Shown: positions 1 through 34,956 of the stretch, one piece after another
Numbering within the stretch: the stretch's first letter is position 1
How the letters are laid out: each line of letters begins with the position of its first letter
NCBI GenBank assembly: GCA_937128505.1
Contig: CAKZMM010000095.1
Coordinates: 1-34,956 of the forward strand
Reading direction: 5' to 3'
Source of the DNA: an uncultured Thermogutta sp.
Lineage (GTDB): Bacteria > Planctomycetota > Planctomycetia > Pirellulales > Thermoguttaceae
DNA length: 34,956 nt
Notes under the pieces: generated by a model
Seen by the model: only the letters and a program-made list of their open reading frames with translations
Told to the model about the DNA's origin: nothing
The model's database searches: none
Made by a program: the position numbers and the translations under genes

Positions 1-54
1 TCCGGCACTTCGCCGACTTCGTTATGGCCGTTTGGTACTCGCCCGGCCTCGGTG

Positions 55-78
55 TTGCCGTCAGACCCCTGACGGCAA
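55..78. other. Perfect 10-bp inverted repeat (hairpin)
   Basis: The arms TTGCCGTCAG (55-64) and CTGACGGCAA (69-78) are exact reverse complements around a 4-base loop. No T-run follows on either strand, so a rho-independent terminator is not well supported. It could be a terminator without a U-tract, a repeated extragenic palindrome or the end of a decayed mobile element. The last idea is suggested by the transposase-like remnant downstream. Confidence 0.6.
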
Positions 79-258
79 CCGGCAATTCTGCTATATTGCC
101 GCCGTGTCCTGCGGTCGTTCTACGTACCCCCGTGAACGCCCACAGAAAAAGTGATCGTCGTGATTAAGGAAAGCGGTGGCGGAGCGGTGGATTCTGGATT
201 GGCCGATTACCTGGTGAATGGTCGACCCGCTTTCCCCGTTGTTTGGCCCCCAATTTAA

Positions 259-311
259 GTCGCCGAGTATCTTCAAGGAAAAAAGGTCGCCGAGTATCCT
301 CGAGGAAAAAG
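259..311. repeat. Two-copy 27-bp tandem repeat
   Basis: Copy 1 (259-285) and copy 2 (286-311) both read GTCGCCGAGTAT, then C(T/C)TC(A/G)AGG, then an A-run. They differ at two substitutions and one A of the run. Read on the minus strand the repeat gives a short GDLFSLKIL peptide motif twice, which is probably coincidental. It sits in a gene-free stretch just before a transposase-like fragment. Confidence 0.7.
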
Positions 312-421
312 GTAGGAGCAAGCGTAGTCTCGGCCTCCATCGTTCTTTTCGCGTACCGTTGGTCTGGGCAGGAAGATGATTTCCTTCAAGAAGAATTACA
401 GTCAATGAGGACGAACGCACG

Positions 422-547
422 GCGAAGAAATACGTCGTGATGTTGCCGGATAAAGAGCGTAAAATTCTGGAAAATTTGGTGAAGAGCAAGTACCCCACAA
501 GTGGGAAGTCAGAAACGCCTGTGTATCGCCGAAGAGATCGGCGGTGA
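422..547 (+). pseudogene. IS630-like transposase N-terminal remnant
   Basis: The frame starting at 422 reads AKKYVVMLPDKERKILENLV and ends at TGA 545-547. This resembles the start of IS630-family transposases, which typically open with a KKYVVxLxxxERxxLxxLV-type segment before a helix-turn-helix. After about 20 residues the resemblance is lost. A neighbouring frame then reads IAEEIGGECDF, faintly like the next helix of such proteins, as expected after an internal deletion and frameshift. No catalytic DDE region is present and no terminal repeats are obvious. The assignment rests on a short match from memory and is tentative. Confidence 0.35.
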
Positions 548-636
548 GTGCGATTTCACGACCGAGCGCGGACACCCGAAGGAACAGACTGTTTATCCGA
601 AATTGATATTAGAAGGGAGGCCTAGCTCGCGGACAG

Positions 637-1185
637 GTGGCCGATGATCAGCTTAACGAAGTTCAGAAGCAGTGGGCCGCGTTGAAAGAGCGTCGTGACA
701 GGCTGCGTGAGTTAGTCTCACAAGCGCAGCGGCAGGTTTTCGAGGCGCGGGCCCGTCAGACGCTTCGTGTAGGGCAGGAAAAAAAGCTTGACCAGCGGAG
801 TTGGCTTGGACCAATGAAGATGGTTTTGCGCTATGACCACCTCTACTTTTGGCACAAGTACGATTCAAAAGGCAATCGGTGCGATATCATTTTCGACGAA
901 ATGATAGTGTTGGAAGATGGGCTGTTGGGGGTGGAGACCACGCCCAATCCCGCTCGGGGCATACCGCTTACATCGCCGGATGCGAGGGGCGGCCTACGAA
1001 GTGCTTTCGCTCGACTTCAGCCGGGGCGGCACTACAGTTCGGCAGCCGTATATCCAGACTCCTTCGATGTTTTTCATTTAATGCGAGAGCTATCTGTCGA
1101 GATTCGTTTACCATATCAGATTTGGATTATGGACGAAGATACTGTGCTCCACGACCGGGGTGGAACGGGGGCACATGTGAAATAG
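637..1185 (+). CDS. Hypothetical protein with N-terminal coiled coil
   Basis: I do not recognise this 182-residue protein. Residues 1-50 are rich in Lys, Arg, Glu, Gln and Leu with heptad-like spacing (EVQKQWAALKERRDRLRELV), suggesting a coiled coil. The rest is a mixed alpha/beta-looking region with many aromatic residues (LRYDHLYFWHKYD, PYQIWIMDEDTV). There is no signal peptide or membrane segment. The start is GTG at 637, the only start codon between an in-frame stop at 610-612 and an ATG at 814. A strong purine-rich Shine-Dalgarno (AGAAGGGAGG, 611-620) precedes it, although the 16-base spacing is long. It ends 34 bp before the convergent hydrolase gene. It may be cargo or a neighbour of the decayed element upstream. 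Confidence 0.6.
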   Translation: MADDQLNEVQKQWAALKERRDRLRELVSQAQRQVFEARARQTLRVGQEKKLDQRSWLGPMKMVLRYDHLYFWHKYDSKGNRCDIIFDEMIVLEDGLLGVETTPNPARGIPLTSPDARGGLRSAFARLQPGRHYSSAAVYPDSFDVFHLMRELSVEIRLPYQIWIMDEDTVLHDRGGTGAHVK

Positions 1186-1219
1186 ACATACTATATTCGC
1201 CGCAAGTCTTTGACGCCCA

Positions 1220-2893
1220 TTACCAGTCCTTCTTGCCGGAATATCGTGGCAAAATGATGTGCGAGGGGTATTTCGCGGAAAGATGTAGACTGTTTGTGGC
1301 AACCCGGGAAGGCCCCATGCCGAGGTGTGGTTTGCCGGTGTTGGGATTCGGCTCAAATCGCGGGGCATTCGATGACGAAACGGCCACCCGAATGCGATGT
1401 CCTCGGTTCAGGATCAGTGAGGTGCTCCAAAGGTCCACCTCTAGCTCGTAAACTTGGCCCGGTTCTAAGAACGCTTCGCGGTCGAGACCCTCGCGAAATC
1501 GGGCTCGAAAGATACCGTCGGTTACAAGCATCGATCGCCCGTCGGGATAGACATCGCAAAGCTTGACGGTGAAATCCGTATCCGGGCTATCACTCGAGAC
1601 AAATAGCCGAGCGCGAATCGGGCCGGTGATTTCAAGGGGCTCATCAAGAGTAGGGGTGGTAAACACCAAGACGTCGGGCCGCGATTCCACAGGACGTTGA
1701 TCCATCGGTCCCTTAGGTAAAAAAAGATTCTGCCCTCCGATGGTCGGAACCGGATTTTCCGGATCAAACCGGTAACTCTTTGCGGCATCGACATCTTGAG
1801 GTGGATCCCACCAAAGGCTACCATCCTTGTGAAAATATCCTCGGAGCGGCTCATATGGCGGGGGCCAGCTGTCGGCCGATCGCCAAAAATTCCCGGGGGC
1901 AGTTGGGTCCTCAGGATCGCCCATAACGTAGTAATGCACAGGTTTATCCTGAGGGACGCCGTTAACGACATTCTTCAACCAATAATCAAAAAACCGTAAG
2001 CGATCCACAGCCGCCGGTTGTTGCTGAGCATTGGGGGGATATCTTAGGCCGCTAAAATTACCGTGTGCCCAAGGTCCGATCACTAGGCGGCAGTTTCCAC
2101 GAGCCCGGGGACCCCCGTGGTTTTGTATGGCCACAAAAGAATTGATCGTGCCTTGCAAAAAAATGTCGTACCAGCCGCCGTGGAAGATGGCAGGAGCATT
2201 AACTCGCTCGGCAAACTTCTCGGGATTGAGCTGTTCCCAAAATTCGTCGTACCGATATCGGGCAAGGAAATTCTTCAAATTCTCAGGATGAAAACGGTTT
2301 TTCTCCAACCAGTTTTCCGCTAACTCTTTACGGAACACACCCCCTTGATAGATCCCCTGGTGATACATGCTGGAAAAAGCGACGCTCACATACTGAGCAC
2401 AAAGTGCGTCCGGGGCGTCGGGGGCCATCATATTCTGGAGGATCCCTAGTGCCGAGCCACCGAGTGTACCGATCTTGCCGTTACACCATGATTGACTGAG
2501 GATCCAATGCAAGGTGTCGTGACCATCACGGCGACCACCTGCCCATCCGTCATCGCTAAAGACGATGAAATCTTCGCCCTCCGATTGAAACCGTCCGCGG
2601 ATGTCTTGAATTACCACGGCATAACCGCGGCGGCAGAGCCCCGTGGCGGTGTCCGCCCCACCCTGCTTTGAATACGGGGTTCGTATCAAAATCACAGGCC
2701 AAGCTGCACCTTCCTGGGTGGGGAGGTAAACGTCGGTGGCTAGTCGAACCCCGTCGCGCATGGGTACCATCACGGTGGTCTTGCTGAGCGGAGTTTGACA
2801 TTTGACAGATGTGGGAACAGCCAGCAAAAGGGAGGCTAAAAGGATCGGGGTGGGAAATCGATAAAACTTCATCCGCTTGGTCCGATGCTGCAT
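1220..2893 (-). CDS. Secreted CocE/NonD family serine hydrolase (X-Pro dipeptidyl-peptidase S15-like)
   Basis: This 557-residue protein belongs to the alpha/beta hydrolase group that includes cocaine esterase, glutaryl-7-ACA acylase and X-prolyl dipeptidyl peptidase. Residues 1-32 form a signal peptide with a hydrophobic core (ILLASLLLAV). The family opening (VPMRDGVRLATDVYLP) follows at about 43-58. The probable catalytic triad is Ser147 in GGSALG, Asp243 in HGGWYDIF and His277 in GPWAHG, each in the usual order and context. From about residue 340 a beta-rich C-terminal domain (ITGPIRARLFVSSDSPDTDF) matches the jelly-roll domain of the family. The start at 2893 has an AGGAG Shine-Dalgarno (complement of 2905-2909). 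It probably cleaves ester or amide bonds outside the cytoplasm; the substrate cannot be told from sequence. It is monocistronic and convergent with the upstream hypothetical gene. Confidence 0.9.
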   Translation of the reverse strand: MQHRTKRMKFYRFPTPILLASLLLAVPTSVKCQTPLSKTTVMVPMRDGVRLATDVYLPTQEGAAWPVILIRTPYSKQGGADTATGLCRRGYAVVIQDIRGRFQSEGEDFIVFSDDGWAGGRRDGHDTLHWILSQSWCNGKIGTLGGSALGILQNMMAPDAPDALCAQYVSVAFSSMYHQGIYQGGVFRKELAENWLEKNRFHPENLKNFLARYRYDEFWEQLNPEKFAERVNAPAIFHGGWYDIFLQGTINSFVAIQNHGGPRARGNCRLVIGPWAHGNFSGLRYPPNAQQQPAAVDRLRFFDYWLKNVVNGVPQDKPVHYYVMGDPEDPTAPGNFWRSADSWPPPYEPLRGYFHKDGSLWWDPPQDVDAAKSYRFDPENPVPTIGGQNLFLPKGPMDQRPVESRPDVLVFTTPTLDEPLEITGPIRARLFVSSDSPDTDFTVKLCDVYPDGRSMLVTDGIFRARFREGLDREAFLEPGQVYELEVDLWSTSLILNRGHRIRVAVSSSNAPRFEPNPNTGKPHLGMGPSRVATNSLHLSAKYPSHIILPRYSGKKDW

Positions 2894-3232
2894 CGCCGTT
2901 TAAGCTCCTGATCAGAATTGCCCAATTAAAATCTGGTTACCAAACCTGAACACGTCGCGGAGCTCACCCGAGGCAGGCTTCGTTCCCCGCGCTTACGCCT
3001 TGGAGCAACGCCACATTCTATCACTAATTGAAACCTGGAGAGCAAAACCAAGGGTAACATTCCCGGGCTTTCCAGCTCCCCTACAGATTTTTTGAGCCGG
3101 AAATCACAGCAGGGTATGTGCGTTCGGCTTTCCTGCTTAGCTAGCGATTTTTCACTTTTCTAGCGCCTTTGGCCGCAAGATTTGTGATTGCTCACGCGAC
3201 CCCCCGGCTACGTGTCGGAGGCTTTGCAGCTT

Positions 3233-3259
3233 GGTAGCGGTCGGAAAGGCTACCCTTTC
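3233..3259. other. Overlapping, mutually exclusive hairpins
   Basis: GGTAGC (3233-3238) can pair with GCTACC (3249-3254), and GAAAGG (3244-3249) can pair with CCTTTC (3254-3259). The two stems share bases and cannot form together. No U-run or start codon in the right place makes this a clear attenuator. Confidence 0.35.
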
Positions 3260-4271
3260 GTCGGAGTTGAAATGCCCCTATCTTAACCAAAAACTTTCAG
3301 GAGTCATAATCATGCACCAACAGTAGTTTTTGACGGCCTCCACTTGCTGACAAGATCGCTAGCCAAATCCTTGATCATTAAGGGTACGTCAAGGCGAGGG
3401 TTTTACTTGGCAATATGCTAAGCATGAAAAACGTCGGTATTTCCAGCCCATTGGTTTATGTTTTCGATTGAAAGGAGGTCTTCTTTTTTCGCTGAAATTC
3501 GAATCAGCCTTTGCAGGCCAATCCGCCTGCGAGGACTCTTGGCATCAGACTGCTCCCTAAGTTCGTGCGGGCCAAAGAGTGTTTTCAAGCTTGCGAGTTC
3601 GCTCATTCAAATATTCGTTCTTCAATGCGAACCATTGGAAAAGTAAAAAAGTGAGTGTGGATTTGAGGCCTCGGTCGCCATGTGCGCTTCCCGATCGCTC
3701 GATGAATCAAGAGCCGTCGCCAGTTTCGGCGGGAGGACGCACCGGCTGAAGCGGCGGGATATTTATTGCTGGATCGATCCGAGGTAAGCTATTCCGGCAA
3801 TCGTATCGAAAGGGGGCAGAATCCTTGCAAAGCAGATAGAAAACGAATAGAGGGCTCTAAAACCGGGGTGGCCGCGACCTCCGGGGCTTGAGCAGGGGCT
3901 GGCCTTGCGCAATCAAAAATCGAAAGCCCTTTCGGCAGTTCCTTGAAAGCTATCATAGTCCGAAAAGCCACCATAATATCGAACCTCAGGCCGCGAAGCC
4001 AAATGCTTGCTGTTAGGCGAATCTTTACGAGTATGTAACTCGCATCGGTGCGAGGGGAGCGGTGGGTTTAATCGGTCATGGCTGGCTATTTTGCATGGGT
4101 AACTGAACCAATCTTACGACCTAGCTTTGAAACAAACGGCTCCAATTGAAATAGTTTCAATTTTTTGACAGGTCATTGCTTGGTTTTTTGAGTAAAATTT
4201 GGTAGGATCAATGGGGCTCTTGGTGGAAAATGAAGTTCTTGGCCCTTACCGGAACTAAGAGCAAGTGCTTT

Positions 4272-4299
4272 TTGAAATACCGGATCAACTCGCTACAAT
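4272..4299 (+). promoter_or_regulatory. Predicted sigma-70-type promoter of the XRE gene
   Basis: TTGAAA (4272-4277) and TACAAT (4294-4299) are separated by 16 bases, close to the TTGACA/TATAAT consensus. Transcription would begin near 4306, leaving a leader of about 75 bases before the ATG at 4380. Confidence 0.45.
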
Positions 4300-4379
4300 T
4301 ACGGCTATTAAATTGAGTGACGCTCGTAAAAGAGGCATTCGGGCAAAAAGTCCACATGCAACGTTGAAAGGGAGTTACT

Positions 4380-4622
4380 ATGAGCCCACCTCGCAAAGAG
4401 CCGAATCTGAGGTCCTATAGTGGCCGGTGTGGTCGACGGCTGCGAGAGTTGCGGGAAAAAGCTGGCCTAACCGTCGAACAGCTGGCCGCCAAACTCGGCG
4501 TCTCATGGCGAGCTGTGTACTATTGGGAAACGGGGAGGGTCACTCCGAAATGGGATCACTACCCGAAATTGGCTCGATTGTTCGGCATTCGATCGCCCCG
4601 GAATTTGCTACCCGAGGATTAG
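4380..4622 (+). CDS. XRE-family helix-turn-helix DNA-binding protein
   Basis: This 80-residue protein is almost entirely one Cro/C1-type helix-turn-helix. It contains LRELREKAGLTVEQLAAKLG, then VSWRAVYYWETGRVTPKWD, then a final helix (YPKLARLFGI). LTVEQLAAKLG followed by SWRAVYYWE is the classical HTH_3 arrangement, in which the second helix is followed by an aromatic and an acidic residue. There is no effector or dimerisation domain. The ATG at 4380 follows AAAGGGAG with good spacing. A hairpin begins 9 bases after the stop, so the gene is probably a single transcription unit. Its targets are unknown; the oxidoreductase gene 220 bp downstream is only a candidate by position. Confidence 0.88.
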   Translation: MSPPRKEPNLRSYSGRCGRRLRELREKAGLTVEQLAAKLGVSWRAVYYWETGRVTPKWDHYPKLARLFGIRSPRNLLPED

Positions 4623-4630
4623 GCAAAGCC

Positions 4631-4655
4631 AACTTCGGCCAGAAAAGCCGAGGTT
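4631..4655 (+). terminator. Hairpin after the XRE gene
   Basis: AACTTCGGC (4631-4639) pairs with GCCGAGGTT (4647-4655), including one G-T wobble, around a 7-base A-rich loop. It starts 9 bases after the XRE stop codon. The following sequence (AAATTAG) lacks a U-tract, so terminator activity is uncertain. Confidence 0.4.
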
Positions 4656-4740
4656 AAATTAGCACATCTGTTTCGATACTGGCCGCCAAGCAGCATCGGC
4701 CCTCTTTTCCTTGCAAAGGCGCGGTTTCCCGAGTTATCCT

Positions 4741-4768
4741 TTGCATAGACTATTTAGGGTGCTATAAA
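4741..4768 (+). promoter_or_regulatory. Predicted promoter of Gfo/Idh/MocA gene 1
   Basis: TTGCAT (4741-4746) and TATAAA (4763-4768) are separated by 16 bases. The start codon lies at 4842, giving a leader of about 65-70 bases. Confidence 0.45.
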
Positions 4769-4841
4769 GGGTCGGTATATCAGACGCCGAAGTAGTCGCC
4801 TCAAACATCCAGGTGCTCTTGATGTGAAAAGGAGCCTAAGA

Positions 4842-6233
4842 ATGTCTCAATTGCGGGTTACGCGCCGGGAAGCCTTGGCTGCGGTAGCAGCCATCGCCGT
4901 TCCACAATTCATCCCCCGTACGATCTTAGGTGGTTCCGGTCGACCCGGGGCCAATGAAATCGTCAATGTGGGGATTATCGGACTGGGAGGTCGTGCTCGA
5001 GCCATGGTTCAGGAATCGGCTGGCATCGCGGATTTGCGGTTTGTGGCTGTCTGCGATTGCTTTCGGCCCGCTGTGGATACGTTTATCCGGGTGGTGGGAA
5101 AGGATCAGAATTGGAACGGATATGACGACTTCCGAGAAATGTTCGACAAGGAAAAGCTCGACGGTGTCATGGTGGAAACCACGACTCATGCTCGGGCTTG
5201 GGTTACCGTCCACGCCATGCAGGCAGGTCTGCATGCTTACATCGAAAAGCCCATGTGCTTGACCATAGCAGAGGGGCGATACCTCGTGCGAGCAGCACGG
5301 CGGTATAACTGCGTGACTCAGGTGGGAACCCAGCAGCGCTCCATGCCCATCAACAATTGGGCAAGCGACCTAGTAAAAAATGGCGCAATTGGCAAGGTAA
5401 AAACGGTCTTAGCCCCTAACTTTGTTGGGCCCCTGCGCTGGCCGGGCAAGCCGGAGCAACCCCTACCGCAGGGGGGACGGGAAGGCTGGTGGGACATTTG
5501 GACCAATCAAGCGGAATACCGTCCCTATCATCCGGAACTGCACCACGGTTGGGCCACTTGGTGGGATTATGATGGCGGCGGATTATGTTTCGGCGTGACG
5601 GGATGGGGCACGCATTCTTACGATCAGATTCAACGGGCTTTAGGTACCGATGAAACAGGCCCTGTTGAAATCATGTTGGAAGAGCCGGTGTATGAAGCTC
5701 CGACGGGCAAGTTCGCAACCGTCACGGAGGTGGATGAGACCCGGTTGGACTACCTCATTCAATTGGCGAAACCCGTGGTTGGTCCGCGGGCAAAAATACG
5801 GATGTGGTATGCGAACGGAACCGAACTACGGCTGCACCTAGACGGGGATTGGGGACCAGGCCTGGGCGCAATTTTCATTGGCGAGAAAGGAAAGATCGAG
5901 ATTAACCGGAACAAAATCGCCAGCAATCCAAGGGAGATCGTCAGTTCACCGGATAATCCGGGGCCAATTACAAAGCCGGAGACGCAGTACCACGTGGAAA
6001 ACTGGGTACATTGCATCAAGACGGGTGAGCGTTGCTCGGCCGACGTTGAAATCGGTCATCGTTCCACCACGCTTTGCTACCTGGTGAACATTGTTCGGGA
6101 GGTCGGCCGAGTGGGCGAACGTATGCGGTGGGACCCGGTAGCCGAGCGATTTACGAACTGCGACGAGGCCAATAGATCATCTTATATGGATCGACCGAGA
6201 CGGAAAGGTTACCAACTTCCTTCGCTCACGTAA
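4842..6233 (+). CDS. Tat-exported Gfo/Idh/MocA family oxidoreductase (1)
   Basis: The 463-residue protein is an NAD(P)-dependent sugar or polyol oxidoreductase-like enzyme. Residues 7-30 (TRREALAAVAAIAV) form a Tat signal, so it should be exported folded, probably with its cofactor. The Rossmann fold begins with VGIIGLGGRAR (about 43-53). The family EKP motif carries the presumed catalytic lysine, Lys136. TQVGTQQRS follows, as in secreted planctomycete members. The C-terminal half is the substrate-binding Gfo/Idh C domain (NWVHCIKTGERC, GHRSTTLCYLVNIVREVGR). I prefer ATG 4842 over the upstream in-frame GTG 4824 because an AAAAGGAG ribosome-binding site lies inside the longer reading, 7 bases before 4842. 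Substrate unknown. It is the first of four paralogues in this window and stands alone. Confidence 0.92.
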   Translation: MSQLRVTRREALAAVAAIAVPQFIPRTILGGSGRPGANEIVNVGIIGLGGRARAMVQESAGIADLRFVAVCDCFRPAVDTFIRVVGKDQNWNGYDDFREMFDKEKLDGVMVETTTHARAWVTVHAMQAGLHAYIEKPMCLTIAEGRYLVRAARRYNCVTQVGTQQRSMPINNWASDLVKNGAIGKVKTVLAPNFVGPLRWPGKPEQPLPQGGREGWWDIWTNQAEYRPYHPELHHGWATWWDYDGGGLCFGVTGWGTHSYDQIQRALGTDETGPVEIMLEEPVYEAPTGKFATVTEVDETRLDYLIQLAKPVVGPRAKIRMWYANGTELRLHLDGDWGPGLGAIFIGEKGKIEINRNKIASNPREIVSSPDNPGPITKPETQYHVENWVHCIKTGERCSADVEIGHRSTTLCYLVNIVREVGRVGERMRWDPVAERFTNCDEANRSSYMDRPRRKGYQLPSLT

Positions 6234-7605
6234 TAGTTGTTTCTTGGTTCGACTCGGTGGCGACGCTCAATTCTTCCCGTGCTTTTTCTGCAAAGTCCGT
6301 TTCGCTGTTTTTCCGCAAAATCGCTGTTGCGGACGAATTGCATAACGGCCGGAATACTCCCTCAAATTGCGATTTGGCCGAACGGTAGAGTGTGCCCCCC
6401 GTAGTTGCAGTCCACTACCTACGATCAAATGGGTCGCAGCGCCCAGATCGTTCCACACCGATTCATCGTTTGCGGCTTTTGATTAGTAATTCCGTGATTC
6501 CTCGCGCTATGTTTGCTCGCGGCGAGGAAAAAAGTGTTTCGACTCACAGCCTCGATTCCAAATGCCTTCTGGCGACGCATCCCCTTCAGGGTAAGGGGCT
6601 GGGTTTGTCTTTTCGCTGCAATCTTCCGATAATCAGGGCGGAGCGCGGCGTGCTTTACCTCCCGTGCCCCGGGTATGCCTAGGATCCATAAACTGATCCC
6701 GGGGAGATCAGGCGGCCATCGCTGGGGGACTAGTTCCGGCTTAATTTCGGTCTAGTGGGTCTCTGCAACGGCCTGCATGCTTGGTCACCGAGAAAATGCG
6801 CGAATTTAGGCGTAAGGGCTTTCGGGGAGGGATCGTTCAGCCGGCTATTGGGGGTTATAAGAACTTATTATCGGGGGTGCGGGTGCTAACTTGGATGCTC
6901 ACTTGACCGCGGGGAAGCAAGATTAGGCATTAAGGCATGGATAACTGATTTTAGCGCCCGATATTGCTGGCCCTCGTGAGTCGGAAATGAAAGCTTATAA
7001 AATGCATGTCTTTAATGATTACGACACTCGATTTACATGGCGGATTGTCCGTAAGAGAACACGGATTTGCTTTGTTTCAGCCAAATCATTAGAGATAGCC
7101 AAAATAAAAAATCCAAATAGTTTATAGTTTATAGACTACAAATCTTATATGGTGATCATGCTAATAATAAAACTATATAATGACCGCCACCTCACGGAAC
7201 CAAAGAGAACACGACTGCTACAATCAATCTTGATACCGATTTGGAAGTTTGCAGCACTGGATAGTTGAGCACATTTAAGACCACTAAGTTAGAATTATAT
7301 ACTATGGTTATCATCTTTTCATTTCTTGGTGAATATGCTTTCTTTGCGTAAGCCAGTTACTTTACTTGTTACCATTTACCATACTGGACACGGCCCGCTA
7401 CGCTGGATGATTACTGATCTTTTCGAGATGAAGCTGATGGCTGGATGTTAATATTGCAAAGGTGATATTAAAAATTTGGAAAAAAATACAAAAATTCAAA
7501 ATCCGGCAAGGGGCGGACTTTTGGTAGGTTGCGGTTTTCACTGTAACTTTTTGGAATCGGGATCCTTGGAGTATTCGAGCAGCATTCCCAGGAGTAGCGT
7601 TTGTA
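6234..7605. other. Intergenic region with AT-rich core upstream of alaS
   Basis: No supported gene or RNA was found in about 1.4 kb. A short hairpin, CCCCTT (6581-6586) with AAGGGG (6593-6598), is present. From about 6960 to 7560 the composition becomes markedly AT-rich (about 30% GC over 7081-7200 by hand count), unlike the flanking genes. The 10-mer AGAGAACACG occurs in both flanks of the AT-rich core, near 7055 and 7203. A TATAAT at 7176-7181 has only a weak -35 partner. Confidence 0.5.
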
Positions 7606-10236
7606 ATGAAAGCTGACGAATTGCGGGAAAAATATTTGGTTTTTTTTGAGTCAAAGGGTTGCGTTCGTCGCCCGAGTGATGTTTTGGTTCCACGTAACGA
7701 CCCTACTGTGCTTTTCACGCCTGCGGGCATGAATCAATTTAAAGATCACTTCTTGGGGCGGGTTAAGTTGGAGTTTACTCGGGCCACGACGTGCCAAAAG
7801 TGTTTGCGCACCGCAGATATCGACAATGTCGGAAGAACTCCCCATCATCACACCTTTTTCGAGATGTTGGGAAATTTCAGTTTTGGAGATTACTTCAAGC
7901 GGGAAGCGATTCTCTGGGCATGGGAATTCTTAACCGATAAGAAGTGGTTGGGACTGGATCCCGAACGTCTATCCGCCAGCGTTTACTATGAGGACCATGA
8001 GGCGGCTGAGATCTGGATCAAGGAGGTCGGTCTACCTTCTGAAAAGGTGGCGTATTTAGGGGAGGATGAGAATTTTTGGCCGGCGAATGCCCCGACGGAA
8101 GGTCCCGACGGAGTCTGCGGGCCTTGTAGCGAGATCTTCGTACATACGCCCTTCGGCAAGGTTGAGGTTTGGAATTTGGTTTTCACCCAGTTTAATCGTG
8201 TAGGACCGCCCCCGAATAATCTGCGACCCTTGCCAAGTAAGAACATCGATACAGGGATGGGGTTAGAGCGAATGGCCGCGGTCCTGCAAGGGGTAGATTC
8301 CAACTTTCACATCGATATACTTCGGCCTTTGGTCGAAGCGGCCGCCGAAGCGTGTCATGCCCAGTATGATCCGAAGGATGATAACGGTCGTAGGTTGCGG
8401 CGAATCGCCGACCATATCCGGGCCTGCACTTTTGCCATTCATGAGAATGTGTACCCCGGTCCCAATAAAGACCGATACATCGTCCGCCGCTTGATTCGCC
8501 GCGCACTTTTGGATGGTTATCAGATCGGGGTAAGGGATCCATTCTTGTATCAGTTGGTCGACAAAGTGGCGGAACTCATGGAGGTTCCCTACCCTGAGCT
8601 GAAAGAGACTACAGCTCGGGTCGCCAAGGTTATCCGGGAAGAGGAGGCAAATTTCCTCGAGACCATTGAGGCCGGTTTGGACCGAATTGAGCGTCTGTTT
8701 ACGACGATGGAGTGTGAGGGCCGGCGCATGGTCTCGGGTGCTGAAGCAGCCTACATCTTCCAAACGTACGGCTTTCCGCCAGAGCTTCTGGAAAGCATGG
8801 CGGCGGAGCGTCGGTTTACCTTCGACTGGGAGGGCTTTCGCCGGGAAATGGAGCGGCATGGCGAGGAGTCGGGGGCAGGTCGGAAGGTGGAAGTCTTTAA
8901 AACCAGTCCTCTGGATAATTTAAAGAAGTCGTTTCAAGGAACGCGATTCCTGGGTTACGAGACGATCGAAAGCGCGGCTTCCATCCTAGGCATCGTCGTG
9001 GGCGAAAGCCTGCGCGAGGCATGGGCGGCGACCGATCAAATGGCGGATCAGCCCGTCGATGTGATCCTGGACCAATCGCCTTTTTATGGGGAGATGGGCG
9101 GGCAGGTGGGTGATACCGGGAAGTTGGTGGCAAAGGGCGTGTTATTCGAGGTCATTGATACCCAGGTGGAGGATGGATTCACTTTACATCGCGGCTTCCT
9201 CCGTGAGGGGCGGTTATCTCAAGGGTTGGAGGTGCGGGCTAAGGTCGATGCAGAGCGACGCCAAGGGATTCGCCGAGCGCACTCGGCCACTCATCTTCTC
9301 CATTATGCTTTGCGGAAACATCTAGGGCCGCATGCTCAGCAGGAAGGGTCGAAAGTTGACTGCGATTGGTTGCGATTCGATTTTGCCCATCCCACCTCAC
9401 TGACCGAAGAGCAGGTTGCCGCGATTGAAGATGAGGTGAACCGGAGTATTTTGGCGTGCGATTCGGTCTCGGCATCGGTCATGCCTTTGGTCGAAGCCCG
9501 GCGGCTGGGAGCGACCATGCTTTTCGGCGAAAAATACGGGGATGAAGTCCGCGTAATTCGAATCGGTAATTACAGCGTCGAGCTTTGTGGGGGCACGCAT
9601 CTCAAAAACACCGGGCAAATCGGCCTATTCAAGATTATCGACGAGGGGAGCATTTCGGCGGGCACACGTCGGGTCGTAGCACTGACGGGAATCGCGGCGT
9701 TCAAAGAGTTCCGCAAAATCGATATGGCGTTAGGAAGGGCCGCGAATTTGTTGCGGGTTTCCAAGGAGGAGCTACCCAACCGCATCGAAGCGATGCTTCA
9801 GGAATTGCGGCAGTTGCGCAAAGCTGCGGCAAGCGGCGCAGTGTCGCCGGCAGTTACCGCGGAGGGATTGCTCGCCGGCAGTGTTTCAGTGGGACAATCG
9901 CGAGTGGTCATTTCGCAACTTCCCGAGGCCAACCCCGCCTTGATGCGGCAACTCATCGATCAGCTCCGCCGGAAAGCCGCACCCGTTGCGGTGCTTCTCG
10001 GGGCTTGCGACGTGCAAGGTAAGGTAACATTGATCGCGGGCTTGAGCCGCGACCTGGTTGAACGGGGCCTCAGTGCGGTCGAATGGGTCCGAGCGATTGC
10101 TCCTATAGTAGATGGAGGTGGCGGCGGCCGCGATGACTTGGCTCAAGCGGGCGGAAAACTTGCCGACCGGTTGCCTCAAGCCTTAGAGGAGGGGCGACGG
10201 TTCATTGAGCAGCGGTTAGCCGTTGCCGTGAGTTGA
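7606..10236 (+). CDS. alaS: Alanyl-tRNA synthetase
   Basis: The 876-residue enzyme charges tRNA-Ala with alanine in the cytoplasm and hydrolyses mischarged Ser- and Gly-tRNA-Ala. Its length is normal for bacteria. The class II catalytic domain spans about 1-360, with the typical opening (LREKYLVFFESKGC), TPAGMNQFKD and the family-specific GRTPHHHTFFEMLGNFSFGD. The editing domain carries the zinc/editing residues H559-x3-H563 (HSATHLLH) and C661-x3-H665 (CGGTHL). A C-terminal DHHA1 domain contains the glycine-rich DGGGGGRDDLAQAGG near residues 835-850. The ATG at 7606 is preceded by CAGGAG. No neighbouring gene is close enough for an operon, and no T-box was recognised in the leader. All key motifs are intact, so it should be the functional cellular AlaRS. 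Confidence 0.98.
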   Translation: MKADELREKYLVFFESKGCVRRPSDVLVPRNDPTVLFTPAGMNQFKDHFLGRVKLEFTRATTCQKCLRTADIDNVGRTPHHHTFFEMLGNFSFGDYFKREAILWAWEFLTDKKWLGLDPERLSASVYYEDHEAAEIWIKEVGLPSEKVAYLGEDENFWPANAPTEGPDGVCGPCSEIFVHTPFGKVEVWNLVFTQFNRVGPPPNNLRPLPSKNIDTGMGLERMAAVLQGVDSNFHIDILRPLVEAAAEACHAQYDPKDDNGRRLRRIADHIRACTFAIHENVYPGPNKDRYIVRRLIRRALLDGYQIGVRDPFLYQLVDKVAELMEVPYPELKETTARVAKVIREEEANFLETIEAGLDRIERLFTTMECEGRRMVSGAEAAYIFQTYGFPPELLESMAAERRFTFDWEGFRREMERHGEESGAGRKVEVFKTSPLDNLKKSFQGTRFLGYETIESAASILGIVVGESLREAWAATDQMADQPVDVILDQSPFYGEMGGQVGDTGKLVAKGVLFEVIDTQVEDGFTLHRGFLREGRLSQGLEVRAKVDAERRQGIRRAHSATHLLHYALRKHLGPHAQQEGSKVDCDWLRFDFAHPTSLTEEQVAAIEDEVNRSILACDSVSASVMPLVEARRLGATMLFGEKYGDEVRVIRIGNYSVELCGGTHLKNTGQIGLFKIIDEGSISAGTRRVVALTGIAAFKEFRKIDMALGRAANLLRVSKEELPNRIEAMLQELRQLRKAAASGAVSPAVTAEGLLAGSVSVGQSRVVISQLPEANPALMRQLIDQLRRKAAPVAVLLGACDVQGKVTLIAGLSRDLVERGLSAVEWVRAIAPIVDGGGGGRDDLAQAGGKLADRLPQALEEGRRFIEQRLAVAVS

Positions 10237-10449
10237 AACGCGGTTCCTTTTGGGGGCCGACCTCTGTTCCAGAAAGTACGCCTGTTTTTCGGCAACCTGC
10301 TTTCAGTCAGACGTTTTGGGATTTTCTCGGCCTGCGTTCTACTTGTGGGATCACTGTTGCAATCTGATTTAGGTTCGCCTGCTTGGCGAGTTGAAGATCA
10401 TATCTCACAGAACCCCCAAAATTGCAAACATCTTATGCAGGTCGAATCG

Positions 10450-10478
10450 TTGCACGGACCCCGCGCGTGTCATAGAAT
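10450..10478 (+). promoter_or_regulatory. Predicted promoter giving a leaderless mRNA
   Basis: TTGCAC (10450-10455) and TAGAAT (10473-10478) are spaced by exactly 17 bases. The ATG of the next gene is at 10485, just 7 bases after the -10 element, where transcription itself should begin. No Shine-Dalgarno is visible before that ATG, which fits a leaderless transcript. Confidence 0.5.
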
Positions 10479-10484
10479 ACGTGC

Positions 10485-10802
10485 ATGAATTGGTCCGATT
10501 TTATGCCACCGCCGGAGCTGTCTCAGGACAGCGTCCCCCTTTGGTGCGACCGGTGTCAGCGCGAAGTTCACCCGGGCAAAGGGGACTTCTACGTCGTGCG
10601 GATTGAGGCTTTCGCGGACCCTACCCCACCGAATTTTACTTTCGAAGATTTGACGCGGGATTGCCGGACGGAAATCGACAATCTCATCGCCGAGCTTAGT
10701 CACTTTTCCCCCCAGGAGCTGATGGATCAAGTGTATCGACGCGTGACTCTTTATCTATGCACTTCGTGTTATCGGCAATGGATTGAAAAGCCGGTTGGGT
10801 GA
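10485..10802 (+). CDS. Small protein with two Cys-x2-Cys pairs (putative zinc-binding)
   Basis: I do not recognise a named family for this 105-residue protein. It has a CxxC pair near the start (WCDRC, Cys21 and Cys24) and another near the end (LCTSC, Cys92 and Cys95). These are a likely split zinc ribbon that brings the two ends together. Between them is an acidic helical stretch (RTEIDNLIAELSHFSPQELMDQVY). There is no signal peptide or membrane segment, so it is probably cytoplasmic. The ATG at 10485 lacks a ribosome-binding site but sits 7 bases beyond a good -10 box. It follows alaS by about 250 bp and seems to be independently transcribed. The second Cys pair and the absence of frameshifts argue for a real gene. 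Confidence 0.7.
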   Translation: MNWSDFMPPPELSQDSVPLWCDRCQREVHPGKGDFYVVRIEAFADPTPPNFTFEDLTRDCRTEIDNLIAELSHFSPQELMDQVYRRVTLYLCTSCYRQWIEKPVG

Positions 10803-11158
10803 GAAGGCAAAAACCGTCGAGCGGGCATTTTTACCTCTATCCTCCGCCGAGTCTAGTCCCCCAATCTCTATCCGTCGGTGCGATCCGTTACGTCTGACCA
10901 AACTCTCCCCCTCCGCTCGGCTATTTAGTTGGCAAGAAAGTCAGCATGCTTCGGTTCAAAATTTGCCCCGTGGTGGGAAGAATCCCTTATTGAATTGTAC
11001 TGACTCCTCATATCCGCCTCCCCTTACAAGTCGACACAAACCAGGCTGCATCACGCTGACGGTCTCAGAGTGTTAAAGGGGCAGCCTTGTCCGCCGAAGG
11101 CATCGCTTTTGTGGGAAACTTTTTCCGAACAGGTAGCAGCTCGGGGAATCTGGCAAGG
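10803..11158. other. Intergenic region between convergent genes
   Basis: These 356 bases lie between the Cys-pair gene and the end of oxidoreductase 2 on the other strand. I see no gene, strong hairpin or repeat. Confidence 0.45.
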
Positions 11159-12532
11159 TCACACCGTTTCGGGCACTTCGTAACCCGGGCGATATTCCCG
11201 CTTGAGATACTTGTCCGCCTCGCGGTCGTTGTCGAAACGCTCGGTTTTCGGATCGAAGTGGACACTTCGCCCAAGAAGGCAGGAGATCTTCATGAGATGG
11301 CAGATAGTCGTGGATATATGCCCTTCTAAAATATCGGCATTAAGATCTTCATGCCGACGCGACCGGATCGCCGCGATCCAGTTTTTGAAGTGCGGGATGC
11401 TTTCTGTCCACCAATCCGGCTGAGGGTCGGCAAATCCGCACGGCCCCGGTTCATTATGAGGACCGAGAAACGTGTAGTAACTGCTGTAATTCGGAAAGAT
11501 CATGAAACCTTCGGTGCCAAAGAAGATCTCGCCCACACATTGGTTGGGAGAAACGAATGGATACTTGTCCCGCATCCACGCCTCGCTGTTAGTATACCAA
11601 TGGCGGGTCTCCACGGTCACCAGAAGATTGCGCCCCGCCCATTGACAAATGGCTGCCTGCGTGTTGGGGGTATCCGCGTCGTCGTCCTCGGCTGGGGGAA
11701 AACGTCCCCCCAAGGACATCACGGTGGTTGGTGCCAAATCCAAGCCCAACCCCCACCTGACCTTATCTACGTCATGAACAAGCTGATTGGCGGCATCGCC
11801 GGAGGCAAAGTTCGAGATCCAGTACCATCGGCGGTGCATGAAAGGACTGTACTCGACCATCTTGGCGGGCCCGACCCATGCGTCCCAATCGAGGCCTTCT
11901 GGAACCGGCGTGGGCCGATGTTTTCCCAGGTTGCCGCGGATTTTGTAAGAGATTGCTCGTGCCATGTACAGTTTGCCGATCACTCCTTCGCGCAGTTTTT
12001 GCATGCCTTCCCGCACAAACGGATTAGAACGATTCTGCATCCCTACCTGAACCATGCGCTTATATTTGCGGGCTGCCTCCACCATTTTGCGGCCTTCCCA
12101 AATGCACCAACTCGGCGGCTTTTCCACGTATACATCCTTGCCTGCCTGGCATGCCCAAATCGTCTGCAAAGCATGCCAGTGGTCCTGCGTGGAGAAGCTG
12201 ATAGCGTGGATCGACTTATCATCAAAAAGTTTGCGTTGGTCCGTGTAAGTCACATACTTCAAATCGGCAAGTTCCGGGTAATCCTTCGGGGCGGTTTCCA
12301 GCCGTTTGCGATCGCAATCGCACAATGCGGCTATTTCAACGTTGTCTTCGTCCGCAATTCGCACTAATGACGCAATATGCGCACGCATCCTCCCCCCTAA
12401 TCCGACTAAGCCAATTCGGATCCGCCCATTGGCACTTTGGGAGGAACGTGCAATCGCCGGCATAGCGACCATTCCTGCCCCCGACAGAGCAGCCTGATGC
12501 AAAAATCTTCTTCGGGTGCGCACCTTCTTCAC
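11159..12532 (-). CDS. Tat-exported Gfo/Idh/MocA family oxidoreductase (2)
   Basis: The 457-residue protein begins with a Tat signal (RTRRRFLHQAALSGAGMVAMPAIA, within 5-28). A Rossmann motif follows (IGLVGLGGRMRAH, 40-52). The EKP motif contains Lys138, the expected catalytic lysine, and VQVGMQNRS follows. The C-terminal region (HFKNWIAAIRSRRHEDLNAD, GHISTTICHLMKISCLLGR) is the family substrate-binding domain. It is most similar in layout to copies 1 and 4. The start is GTG at 12530-12532 with a strong Shine-Dalgarno (GGAGAG, complement of 12539-12544) at ideal spacing. It is divergent from oxidoreductase 3 across a 700-bp gap. Substrate unknown. Confidence 0.92.
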   Translation of the reverse strand: MKKVRTRRRFLHQAALSGAGMVAMPAIARSSQSANGRIRIGLVGLGGRMRAHIASLVRIADEDNVEIAALCDCDRKRLETAPKDYPELADLKYVTYTDQRKLFDDKSIHAISFSTQDHWHALQTIWACQAGKDVYVEKPPSWCIWEGRKMVEAARKYKRMVQVGMQNRSNPFVREGMQKLREGVIGKLYMARAISYKIRGNLGKHRPTPVPEGLDWDAWVGPAKMVEYSPFMHRRWYWISNFASGDAANQLVHDVDKVRWGLGLDLAPTTVMSLGGRFPPAEDDDADTPNTQAAICQWAGRNLLVTVETRHWYTNSEAWMRDKYPFVSPNQCVGEIFFGTEGFMIFPNYSSYYTFLGPHNEPGPCGFADPQPDWWTESIPHFKNWIAAIRSRRHEDLNADILEGHISTTICHLMKISCLLGRSVHFDPKTERFDNDREADKYLKREYRPGYEVPETV

Positions 12533-31129: not shown

Positions 31130-34100
31130 ATGTCCGCAGACCACCCCGAATTGGCTAGGCGCGAAAGGGGCTGCTGTGGGTTGCCGGGATCTGGAAGTCC
31201 CAGCAAAATCTCCGGCAGTTGTTGTTCGGGAACGGCGCTACCGCGGCGTGAATTTGTGGCCCTGTCTGCCGTGCTAGGTGTCGGCACCTTGGGCCTCGGC
31301 GGAATTATGGCAGGACCATTTGAGCCAGTAGATACCGCCGATCATTTTGTGCCCCCGGATAAAAAACTGAATCCCGAGTGGGTCAACTCGTTATTTCAGC
31401 GAGGGGAAAGAACCTTTTACCGGGGCACGGATCTTAAAAACATCGCGATGCCGATCGGCGGAATTTGCACCGGTCAGCTTTACTTGACCGGCGATGGACG
31501 ACTTGATTACTGGGACATTTTCAACGCCTATAAATTTAGTGGTTACGGGGCAACAAACTATCAAGCTCGTCCTCAGCCGGCGGCCCAAGTTCGTCAAGGG
31601 TTTGCTGTGCGGGTTCGGTCATCGCGCGGGACGGTGATCCGGACTTTGGACCAGGCCGGTTTTGGCGACGTGACTTTTTGCGGTGAGTACCCTATTGCCG
31701 AAGTTCACTATCAGGATCCTAATGTACCGGTGCGCGTCAAACTGGCCGCCTTTTCGCCCTTTATCCCCTTGAACGAGGAGGATTCTGGTATCCCCGTGAC
31801 CATCCTCGAATATACGGTTACTAATCCGACTGAAGAAGATTTGGACGTCACTTTAGCGGGTTGGCTGGAAAATGCCGTGATGTGTCACCGCGGGATCTTT
31901 TTCGATTTGCTGCGAGTGAACTCGCCGAAATGCGGGGAAAATTGGTCGATGATTGACGGCGCATGCCGCCCTGGACCCGAGTCACCAGTGCGGCCACCGA
32001 TCGTGCTAGCGGATTTCGAGGGGGATAGCTACGGTAATTGGGTTGCCGAAGGTGAAGCTGTGGGCACCGCACCGGCTCGGGGAACGCTTCCGCGTCAGCA
32101 GCCGGTTACCGGCTTTTTGGGAGGGGGCTTGGTCAATACGTATCAGGGTGGGGACGACACGGTGGGCCGGCTACTTTCCCCTGCGTTCACCATCAATCGG
32201 CGCTTCATCAACTTTTTAATTGGCGGTGGAGCCCACCCGGGCGAAACATGCGTCAATCTGCTGGTTGATGGGCAAATCGTGCGCACCGCCACCGGGAAGA
32301 ACACCGAACGGTTAGAATGGCACACTTGGGATGTGCGCGAATTCGAGGGGAAGGAGGCTCAAATTGAAATCCTCGATCGCCGCAAAGGTCCCTGGGGACA
32401 CGTAAACGTGGATCAAATCGAGTTGCGCGATCGTCCTCGTTCGGAGCCGACCGGTCCAGCGGAAACTCAACGTGACTTCGGCACGATGGGGTTGGCGATT
32501 CTGGAGCGAGAGGTTTTGGCAGCAACTCAGGTGGGAGTCGACCCGGTTGCCACGGTGTTCTCGGAGGGTGTGCTTCGTTCTTGGGAACAAGTGCAACCAG
32601 CCGAGGAATCTTTGGATTGCCCCCTTGTAGGGGCTTTGGCTAAGCAATTCTCGCTGCGGTCGCAGCAATCCGCAAGCGTTCGCTTCTTGGTCGCATGGAG
32701 TTTCCCGAATTTGCACGAACGCGGCGAGCGGCGGGGCAACTACTATGCCAATCGATTTCCGAGTGCCAGCGCGGTGGTGGAGTATGTCGCGGCAAACTTC
32801 GAGCGTCTTTCGCGAGAAACCCGCTTATGGCATGAAACCTGGTATGACTCCACCCTGCCGCATTGGTTGCTGGATCGGCTGTTTTCGACCGTCTCCACTT
32901 TGGCAACGACCACATGTCAATGGTGGGCTAACGGACGATTCTGGGCTTACGAAGGAGTAGGCTGTTGCCACGGCACCTGTTCGCACGTCTGGAACTATGC
33001 TCATGCAATGGGGCGACTTTTTCCCCGGCTAGAGCGATCCGTGCGCGAGCTTCAGGATTTTAACCCACCCGCCGGTTTCGTGGAGGAAACGGGGATGATT
33101 CGTTTCCGCGGTGAGGGGTGGAACATGTGGGCAGGGGATGGGCAAGCAGGTACCATCCTGAAAGCTTACCGGGAGCATCTGGTGTCAACCGATTCGCAAT
33201 TCCTCCGACGGAGTTGGCCATTTATTAAGAAGGCTCTCGAATTCCTGATTAATGAAGATAAGGATGAAAACGGCATCCTCGAAGGCTCACAGCACAATAC
33301 CTACGACATTAACTTCGAGGGGCCGAACACCATGGTGGGTTCGCTCTATTTGGCGGCCCTCAGAGCGGGCGAAGAGCTGGCCAAGGAAATGGGCGATGAC
33401 GCATTCGCGCAGCGGTGTCGGACCCTTTTTGAGCGCGGGAAAGAATATACCGCGAAAGAACTTTTTAACGGCGAGTACTTCATCCAAAAAGTTGATCTCA
33501 CCAAACATCCCAAGCATCAGTATGCCGACGGTTGTTTGTCGGACCAACTTTTCGGCCAAGGTTGGGCTCACCAAGTGGGTTTGGGGTATATTTATCCCCC
33601 AGAGATGGTTCGCTCTGCCTTAAAGGCGATCTGGGTATACAATTGGACCCCCGATGTAGGGCCACAAAATCAGGCCCACCCCCCTCAGCGGTGGTTTGCG
33701 CGACCTGGCCAGGGGGGGCTTTTCGTGTGCACATGGCCAAAAAGCAAACACCTGGGTCCGGAAAGCGTCCTTTACCGCGACGAGGTATGGACCGGCTGCG
33801 AGTACCAAGTTGCCGGACACATGGTGTGGGAGGGCATGCTGACGGAGGCACTGGTGATCTGTCGGGCGGTCCATGATCGATATCACCCCTCGAGCCACAA
33901 CCCGTGGAATGAAGTAGAATGCGGGGACCATTACGCCCGGGCTCTGGCCAGCCATGGGGTCTTCTTGGCTCTCTGCGGTTTTGAGTATCATGGACCGCGG
34001 CAACACATCGGTTTTACGCCTCGATTTAATCCCGAGAATTTCCGAGCCGCCTTTACCGCAGCAGAAGGCTGGGGGAGTTATACACAAAGTTGCAAGCCCG

Positions 34101-34327
34101 ATTCGCAAGTTTGCTCGCTTATTATGAAATGGGGACGGTTGCCGATCCGAACTCTTGCCTTCGAGTTGCCGGAAGGAAAGGCGGCAGCCAAAGTTACGCT
34201 GAAGATGGGCGAAAAACTTATCGAATCGCAGTTCGCACAGACAGATCGCCGGTTGGAAATCCGTTTGGCCGAACCGGCAGTTATAGGGGTCGGAGATAAT
34301 CTGGAGGTGGCAATCAGCTTCGCGTAA
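31130..34327 (+). CDS. Tat-exported GH116-type (GBA2-like) glycoside hydrolase with inserted jelly-roll module
   Basis: This 1065-residue enzyme resembles family GH116, which includes GBA2 and bacterial beta-glucosidases. The N-terminus has two Cys-Cys pairs (15-16, 31-32) and then a Tat signal (PRREFVALSAVLGVG, 38-52). The GBA2-type N-terminal domain begins with NIAMPIGGICTGQLYLTGDG. A module at about 290-430 (ADFEGDSYGNW, FLIGGGAHPGETC, GPWGHVNVDQIEL) resembles one found in levanase/invertase-type enzymes and is inserted within the N-terminal domain. The (alpha/alpha)6 catalytic region follows (WYDSTLPHWLLDRLFSTVS). By alignment from memory, Glu608 (AYEG) would be the nucleophile and Asp726 (NTYDINFEGPNTMVGSLY) the acid/base. 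LSDQLFGQGW and RDEVWTGCEYQVAGHMV also match. The ATG at 31130 follows AGGAG. Substrate unknown; beta-glucosides or related glycans are likely. Confidence 0.9.
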   Translation: MSADHPELARRERGCCGLPGSGSPSKISGSCCSGTALPRREFVALSAVLGVGTLGLGGIMAGPFEPVDTADHFVPPDKKLNPEWVNSLFQRGERTFYRGTDLKNIAMPIGGICTGQLYLTGDGRLDYWDIFNAYKFSGYGATNYQARPQPAAQVRQGFAVRVRSSRGTVIRTLDQAGFGDVTFCGEYPIAEVHYQDPNVPVRVKLAAFSPFIPLNEEDSGIPVTILEYTVTNPTEEDLDVTLAGWLENAVMCHRGIFFDLLRVNSPKCGENWSMIDGACRPGPESPVRPPIVLADFEGDSYGNWVAEGEAVGTAPARGTLPRQQPVTGFLGGGLVNTYQGGDDTVGRLLSPAFTINRRFINFLIGGGAHPGETCVNLLVDGQIVRTATGKNTERLEWHTWDVREFEGKEAQIEILDRRKGPWGHVNVDQIELRDRPRSEPTGPAETQRDFGTMGLAILEREVLAATQVGVDPVATVFSEGVLRSWEQVQPAEESLDCPLVGALAKQFSLRSQQSASVRFLVAWSFPNLHERGERRGNYYANRFPSASAVVEYVAANFERLSRETRLWHETWYDSTLPHWLLDRLFSTVSTLATTTCQWWANGRFWAYEGVGCCHGTCSHVWNYAHAMGRLFPRLERSVRELQDFNPPAGFVEETGMIRFRGEGWNMWAGDGQAGTILKAYREHLVSTDSQFLRRSWPFIKKALEFLINEDKDENGILEGSQHNTYDINFEGPNTMVGSLYLAALRAGEELAKEMGDDAFAQRCRTLFERGKEYTAKELFNGEYFIQKVDLTKHPKHQYADGCLSDQLFGQGWAHQVGLGYIYPPEMVRSALKAIWVYNWTPDVGPQNQAHPPQRWFARPGQGGLFVCTWPKSKHLGPESVLYRDEVWTGCEYQVAGHMVWEGMLTEALVICRAVHDRYHPSSHNPWNEVECGDHYARALASHGVFLALCGFEYHGPRQHIGFTPRFNPENFRAAFTAAEGWGSYTQSCKPDSQVCSLIMKWGRLPIRTLAFELPEGKAAAKVTLKMGEKLIESQFAQTDRRLEIRLAEPAVIGVGDNLEVAISFA

Positions 34328-34330
34328 ATT

Positions 34331-34357
34331 TGAAGGTTGCGTTTGAACCTTCATTTG
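34331..34357 (+). terminator. Hairpin terminator after the GH116 gene
   Basis: TGAAGGTT (34331-34338) and AACCTTCA (34346-34353) form a perfect 8-bp stem with a 7-base loop, 3 bases after the stop codon. It is followed by a short TTTG. The U-tract is weak, but position and structure fit a terminator. Confidence 0.6.
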
Positions 34358-34794
34358 ACCCTAAGTGAAGGCGTAGTTTCGGGGGCATCCCCCCCGGTTG
34401 CGGGAAACGATCAAAGTTGGCTGAATTTCTTCTTGACCACGCACGCTTTATGCGTCTGCTGCCGCGAGGGGCTTACGCATCGACAAGTGTTTAGGTTCGC
34501 GCACAAAAGGTTAACTCTCGAAAAAAGGGAAACATAGTATTGGTTTGCATAGGGCAGTGATTTGATAACTGCATGGCGTTAGGCGGGAAGCGATGTTGTA
34601 TCGCTTGTTCCCTCGGTCTCGGGTAAGTTTGGGCGGGGATTGACGGCGGATCATTGGTGGTTGACCTTCGAATTCTCGCCTGCTTCTTTAAGCCGACTCT
34701 CCCGGAATACAACGAGGCCGGAATCCCTCAGCACGAGCTACCATGAGTTTTGAATAAACCGGGGCGAAAAATTTGCTTTACACAGTCTCTGGTC
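34358..34794. other. Region without recognised genes before the repeats
   Basis: No open frame with a ribosome-binding site and protein-like composition was found in these 437 bases. The last 50 bases before the repeats are AT-rich and could act as a leader if the repeats are a CRISPR array. Confidence 0.4.
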
Positions 34795-34943
34795 ATCACT
34801 CGCCTTGCGCATGGAAGGCAGAACTCGAGACTGATAACGCGGATAAGATAGAAGCATTGCTCGCCTTGCGCATGGAAGGCAGCTTCACAAGCTTTGCACA
34901 TCTCAAATTGCGGAATATCGCAGGCCGTGCACTCGGCCGGCAG
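34795..34943. repeat. Regularly interspaced repeats, CRISPR-like
   Basis: A 23-bp sequence starting CTCGCC and ending GGAAGGCAG is present identically at 34799-34821 and 34860-34882. A third, degenerate copy (15 of 23 bases by hand count) sits at 34921-34943. The starts are exactly 61 bp apart each time. An AT just upstream (34795, 34856, 34917) is also shared, so the unit may be about 27 bp with 34-bp unrelated spacers. GCCTT and AAGGC within the repeat can form a small hairpin. These are properties of a short CRISPR array with a decayed last repeat, but no cas gene is in the window and only two to three units are visible. A 61-bp period is not a multiple of three, arguing against a protein repeat. 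Confidence 0.6.
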
Positions 34944-34956
34944 ATTAAATCATTAA

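What the first reader, a model, noticed from the sequence alone, without database searches (positions are those of the whole stretch)
34795..34943. Exactly periodic (61 bp) repeats at the window edge: tiny CRISPR array or new repeat family
Two identical 23-bp repeats and a third degenerate copy lie at exact 61-bp intervals with unrelated, equal-length intervening sequences. A 61-bp period equals the 29 + 32 bp of type I-E arrays, but the repeat does not look like a typical I-E repeat. Degeneration of the last copy fits the leader-distal end of an array, and the AT-rich stretch on the left fits a leader. It could equally be a small solitary array or a non-CRISPR interspersed element.
Basis: partly seen in the sequence, partly recalled or inferred. 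Interest (0 to 1): 0.6.

Follow-up and report, generated by a model that had tools for sequence, protein, structure and literature searches.

The report
CRISPR-like repeat trio, probably not CRISPR
Two identical 23-base repeats and a weaker third copy, 61 bases apart at the end of a bacterial contig, look like a tiny CRISPR array, but the tests favour an ordinary local repeat that probably lies in front of a neighbouring gene.

Summary
The repeat is real: identical 23-mers at 34799-34821 and 34860-34882, an 18/28 copy at 34916-34943, spaced 61 and 61 bp, intervals unrelated. The window is a whole contig (C95), ending 13 bp after copy 3. The genome has a complete type I-E system with period 61 on another contig, so CRISPR was worth testing. 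A covariance model of 12 family I-E repeats scores true repeats at 33-44 bits; around the copies nothing exceeds 3.8. The would-be handle differs between copies. Of 19 window proteins scanned none is Cas-like. The 23-mer occurs nowhere else in the genome; 119 family and 396 order genomes gave only single 3-mismatch matches. Against my reading: ungapped resemblance to the genome's own I-E repeat (48/84; 0.0006-0.003 of shuffles do as well). Synteny with two genus-mates puts the repeats between GH116 and a DUF2961 gene, which lies at the end of contig C51. Best reading: a locus-specific direct repeat with a dyad, perhaps duplicated binding sites. A relict array is not excluded, since the junction is unassembled.

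The parts
34794..34821 (+). copy 1 (exact 23-mer at 34799-34821; dyad GCCTT-N8-AAGGC at 34802-34819)
34855..34882 (+). copy 2 (exact 23-mer at 34860-34882; same dyad at 34863-34880)
34916..34943 (+). copy 3, 18/28 identical; four outer dyad pairs kept, one of them by a two-sided change (T-A to G-C), fifth pair broken
34822..34854 (+). interval 1, unrelated to interval 2
   Evidence: 11/33 identical, counted at 34826-34858 and 34887-34919
34883..34915 (+). interval 2
31130..34327 (+). upstream gene, glycoside hydrolase family 116 (PF04685, PF12215)
34328..34956 (.). intergenic stretch up to the contig end; by synteny a DUF2961 gene follows (PF11175; ortholog at the end of contig C51, L086:7655-9721 minus)

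Best explanation
A locus-specific, non-CRISPR direct repeat in the intergenic region between a GH116 gene and, by synteny, a DUF2961 gene. Shown: two exact 23-mers and one weaker copy, same orientation, 61 bp apart, the strong ones holding an 18-bp dyad with 5-bp arms and the third a weaker form of it. Inferred: the repeat arose by local duplication, and if it has a function it acts as a tandem pair (with a weak third) of DNA-binding sites in the upstream region of the DUF2961 gene, bound by a dimeric regulator. The regulator is unknown and no step of this function was tested.
For: Location: the only GH116 match of this genome ends at 34327. Its 65-67% orthologs in both genus-mates are followed on the same strand by a DUF2961 gene after roughly 160 bp (G002) and 215 bp (G001) (distances worked out from those coordinates). 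This genome's DUF2961 ortholog (73% to G002) starts about 60 bp from the end of contig C51 in the matching orientation. Each strong copy carries GCCTT-N8-AAGGC; copy 3 keeps four outer pairs, one by change on both sides. No other copies in the genome. I-E model negative. Isolated exact pairs with unrelated intervals occur elsewhere in related genomes.
Against: The 23-mer includes bases outside the dyad arms that a binding site need not keep. None of 98 relatives matches the region, so there is no conservation evidence for regulation. The contig join is inferred; the pair GH116-DUF2961 was not found in G026 or G039. The period equals that of the genome's own I-E array and recurs twice, and the ungapped resemblance to its repeat is better than shuffles. 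61 bp is not a whole number of helical turns at 10.5 bp.
Confidence: 0.5

Rival explanations
1. A relict or divergent type I-E-like CRISPR mini-array (solitary, three or more units), possibly continuing in the unassembled gap.
For: Period 61 as in the genome's I-E array. Ungapped identity to the own I-E repeat 16, 17 and 15 of 28 in one register (start 34798), the best place in the window; 0.0006 of 5000 shuffled consensuses do as well, 0.003 of 20,000 dyad-preserving shuffles, 0 of 1000. Of 11 family I-E repeats the genome's own scores best, and 7 choose the same start, 8 if the one-base offset of G100 is allowed for. The dyad overlaps the place of the I-E stem. A 16/28 match to copy 1 near the start of C51 would be a fourth copy if the gap were about 18 bp; over 113 places and three copies this is near chance.
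Against: Model of 12 I-E repeats: true repeats 33-44 bits, a match at the far end of one array 22.4, nothing above 3.8 bits in the last 257 bases and none in the register above; copies 2 and 3 are met only on the other strand, at 2.9 and 0.8 bits. Copies hold only 5, 6 and 5 of the 10 columns invariant in the 12 repeats (my count). Copies 1 and 2 share their departures from the consensus yet differ in the handle, unlike independent decay. No Cas-like protein among 19 scanned. RNA folding is not better than shuffles over 111-142 nt. The other orientation also has a register (34790) chosen by 3 of 11 repeats, with 41/84 for the own repeat (0.035 of shuffles) and 43/84 for G002 (0.01, above its own 41 in the first orientation), so the orientation is not settled.
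Confidence: 0.25
2. A neutral local duplication with no function; the third copy is chance similarity.
For: Three comparable isolated pairs in 282,851 held bases. No match in 98 relatives. No RNA-fold signal over longer stretches.
Against: Copy 3 lies exactly at the predicted offset, and no other place on the window's + strand reaches 18/28.
Confidence: 0.25

Closest known systems
Type I-E CRISPR array (the genome's own, contig C102)
   Same: period 61, unrelated intervals, a dyad overlapping the place of the stem
   Different: repeat not recognised by the I-E model, handle not conserved, two strong copies only, no Cas-like protein found on the contig
'False-CRISPR' elements (PMC5294841; start of abstract and passages seen)
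   Same: repeat-interval structure without companion cas genes at the locus
   Different: the paper's definition also asks for a lack of diverse spacers; the two intervals here do differ
Tandem operator sites of a dimeric regulator (general knowledge, no call)
   Same: repeated dyads, same orientation, probably upstream of a gene
   Different: no regulator or conservation shown

Membership tests
Type I-E CRISPR array | period of about 61 bp with unrelated intervals | tested here: met
Type I-E CRISPR array | repeat recognisable as an I-E repeat (in the 12 family repeats: TCCC stem start, GGG stem end, TG in the handle) | tested here: not met
Type I-E CRISPR array | whole repeat, handle included, near-identical in all units | tested here: not met
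   identity of copies 1 and 2 stops after the 23-mer on the right; copy 3 is 18/28
Type I-E CRISPR array | cas genes in the genome (adjacency not strictly required) | tested here: met
   Cas1, Cas2, Cas3, Cse1, Cse2, Cas7, Cas5, Cas6e on contig C102; none among 19 window proteins scanned
Type I-E CRISPR array | leader like that of the genome's own array | tested here: inconclusive
   no similarity above shuffles for any of 7 leaders; among the true leaders only G019 stood out against the own one (score 25, others 12-16; no shuffles made for these pairs)
Type I-E CRISPR array | spacers match mobile elements | tested here: inconclusive
   exact 18-base pieces, no viral match; (phages, 34700-34956; plasmids, 34330-34956): no match
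CreTA-like guide (name and features recalled; not confirmed by a paper read here) | degenerate repeats flanking a guide that partly matches a nearby promoter | tested here: inconclusive
   no 8-base seed match of either interval, in the registers and strands tried, in 34330-34956, the first 400 bases of the C51 end or C102:1-1100; the gap could not be read
Tandem operator | dyad in each copy | tested here: met
   the fifth pair is broken in copy 3
Tandem operator | bound by a regulator and affects the downstream gene | not testable with these tools
   needs binding and expression data

The most novel reading that the evidence does not exclude
A divergent I-E-like mini-array sitting upstream of a DUF2961 gene, whose RNA would be taken up by the genome's own Cascade to steer something other than phage defence, such as control of the neighbouring gene.
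Probability: 0.07. Interest if true: 0.55.

Novelty: new member of a known kind. Interest (0 to 1): 0.17.

Why it matters
Mainly as a calibration case. Exact period, palindrome and a degenerate end copy can imitate a CRISPR array even in a genome that owns a real array of the same period; a repeat model built from the family and contig synteny help to tell them apart. If the junction did hold more units, it would be a solitary divergent array on a contig without its cas genes.

Tried and rejected
LysR-type regulator start: the open frame 34773-34955 (+) looked LysR-like by eye, but Pfam at E 10 and the PDB sequences gave nothing. Apart from itself its best match in 119 family genomes (G119, E 0.004) lies antisense within a longer frame. 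Rejected as coding evidence.

Trailing end of the C102 array: would need the other orientation, which fits the own repeat less well, and the I-E repeat itself occurs only on C102 (up to 3 mismatches). Not supported, not excluded.

Known RNA family: none in the window at gathering score. Promoters and terminators in 34300-34956: none and one, about what shuffles give. 23-mer in other bacteria: a 20-base core matched 4 stretches in genome contigs, one match each, three of them with near-identical flanks; the 18-base core matched one viral contig once. In the family search 3 of 119 genomes match, own included, at up to 3 mismatches, in the order search 10 of 396, own included. Every match outside this genome is single and has 3 mismatches, and the reversed control pattern matches in 5 and 6 genomes. 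So this is background.

Literature: three searches; passages seen in PMC4869251 and PMC5294841, whose abstract I saw in part. No claim is made that such a repeat is absent from print.

Mended on re-check: DUF2961 had been named from memory and is now a Pfam match; Cas2 and Cas6e had not been scanned and now are; the remaining 9 of the 19 window proteins were put through PADLOC.

Full report
Observation. The two strong copies are exact over 23 bases and alike at 26 of 28; the third matches at 18 of 28. Spacing is 61 and 61, and the intervals are unrelated (11/33). Up to 3 mismatches the 23-mer occurs only here in a 5.58 Mb, 198-contig genome. The window is the complete contig C95, so the array-like end is a contig end, 13 bases after copy 3. 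The exact pair by itself is not remarkable: of 9 rows printed by a scan of 44 held loci (282,851 bases, window included) one is the finding, three are other isolated pairs with unrelated intervals, three rows of L069 were dropped as tandem arrays and two rows of L062 as an I-E array that my filter missed. The three pairs lie in loci chosen for carrying I-E cas1, so this is no fair rate. What is less ordinary is the third copy in register.

Does the genome have CRISPR? Yes. Contig C102 carries Cas1, Cas3, Cse1, Cse2, Cas7, Cas5, Cas2e and Cas6e of type I-E, over NCBIfam cut-offs (Cas3 over the core and HD cut-offs, below that of the full-length PRK09694 model). Its array is cut by the contig's left end, with three repeats GTTCTCCCTGCACACGCAGGGATGATCC at period 61; that repeat occurs only there (up to 3 mismatches). 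Contig C122 carries a second cas1, a reverse transcriptase-like gene next to it (below the group II cut-off), and 37-base repeats at spacing 74 and 72. The only Cas3 core over cut-off is on C102; a weak match on C167 is below it.

Are the copies I-E repeats? The evidence is split, and the stronger test is negative. Without gaps, the own I-E repeat fits the three copies at 16, 17 and 15 of 28 in one register (start 34798), the best place in the window. Shuffled consensuses reach that in 0.0006 of 5000 trials, dyad-preserving shuffles in 0.003 of 20,000. Among 11 family repeats the own one scores best and 7 choose the same register. The other orientation gives 41/84 for the own repeat (0.035) at a register (34790) that 3 of 11 repeats choose, and G002's repeat fits that orientation slightly better (43 against 41). 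On the other side stands a covariance model of 12 I-E repeats from the genomes whose arrays could be read (17 of 119 family genomes had a cas1e match at E 1e-30). It finds true repeats at 33-44 bits, a match at the far end of the L070 array at 22.4, and off-strand matches of the same arrays at 15-16 (10 loci, listed hits in 6; these repeats are also in the model, so high scores are expected). In the whole window it lists 12 matches at E up to 10, best 12.8 bits, none of them the copies. In the last 257 bases the best is 3.8 bits; the copies are touched only on the - strand, copies 2 and 3 at 2.9 and 0.8 bits in the 34790 register. The copies hold 5, 6 and 5 of the ten invariant columns (my count), and the bases after the stem, which would be the crRNA handle, differ between copies beyond CAG. 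I read this as CRISPR-like geometry, not an I-E repeat.

Where is it? GH116 at 31130-34327 is the only GH116 match of this genome. In both genus-mates its ortholog is followed on the same strand by a DUF2961 gene (Pfam PF11175 for G002's and the own protein); in G026 and G039 no DUF2961 match was found in the 8 kb searched. This genome's ortholog (73%) lies at the very end of contig C51, its start towards the end, with about 60 bases upstream of the start that aligns with the genus-mates. So C95 (+) most likely continues into C51 (-), and the repeats sit in the upstream region of DUF2961. The interval is roughly 160 and 215 bp in the mates and at least about 690 bp here (worked out from the coordinates). 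The two contig ends show no convincing overlap (best 9 of 11). A 16/28 match to copy 1 at base 3 of the C51 end would be in register if the gap were about 18 bp; over 113 places and three copies that is near chance, so I do not claim a fourth copy.

Mechanism. Each strong copy holds GCCTT-N8-AAGGC; copy 3 keeps four outer pairs, one by a two-sided change, and loses the fifth. RNA folding of 111-142 nt is no better than shuffles; the single copies have z 0.2, -1.5 and -2.1. This leans to DNA-level dyads, that is duplicated binding sites, or to a neutral duplication, over processed RNA; none of this is shown. No conservation is available, as none of 98 relatives matched the region.

Verdict. The CRISPR reading keeps some statistical support but fails the repeat-family and handle tests. 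Most likely an ordinary local direct repeat, at best a small set of regulatory sites; a relict array stays possible until the junction is read.

Noticed in passing
L026 (G000:C122), 7814-8899 and 8924-10486, repeats 11102-11287: A second CRISPR locus: Cas1 followed by a separate reverse transcriptase-like gene (group II model, below cut-off) and a three-repeat array with 37-base repeats at spacing 74 and 72.
   Followed up: partly
L027 (G000:C102) 1-9452: Complete type I-E gene set whose array is cut by the contig end after three repeats.
   Followed up: partly
L064, L063, L027, L046: In several genomes of this family the contig ends inside or right beside the I-E array; in G001 it ends exactly at the end of the first repeat.
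   Followed up: no
L071 781-7955: A very long I-E array (over 100 repeats) with occasional irregular spacings of 62, 63, 70 and 80.
   Followed up: no
L065:2153-2242 and L070:5695-5797: Isolated exact direct repeats (25 bp at 65, 34 bp at 69) with unrelated intervals near I-E loci, similar in kind to the finding.
   Followed up: no
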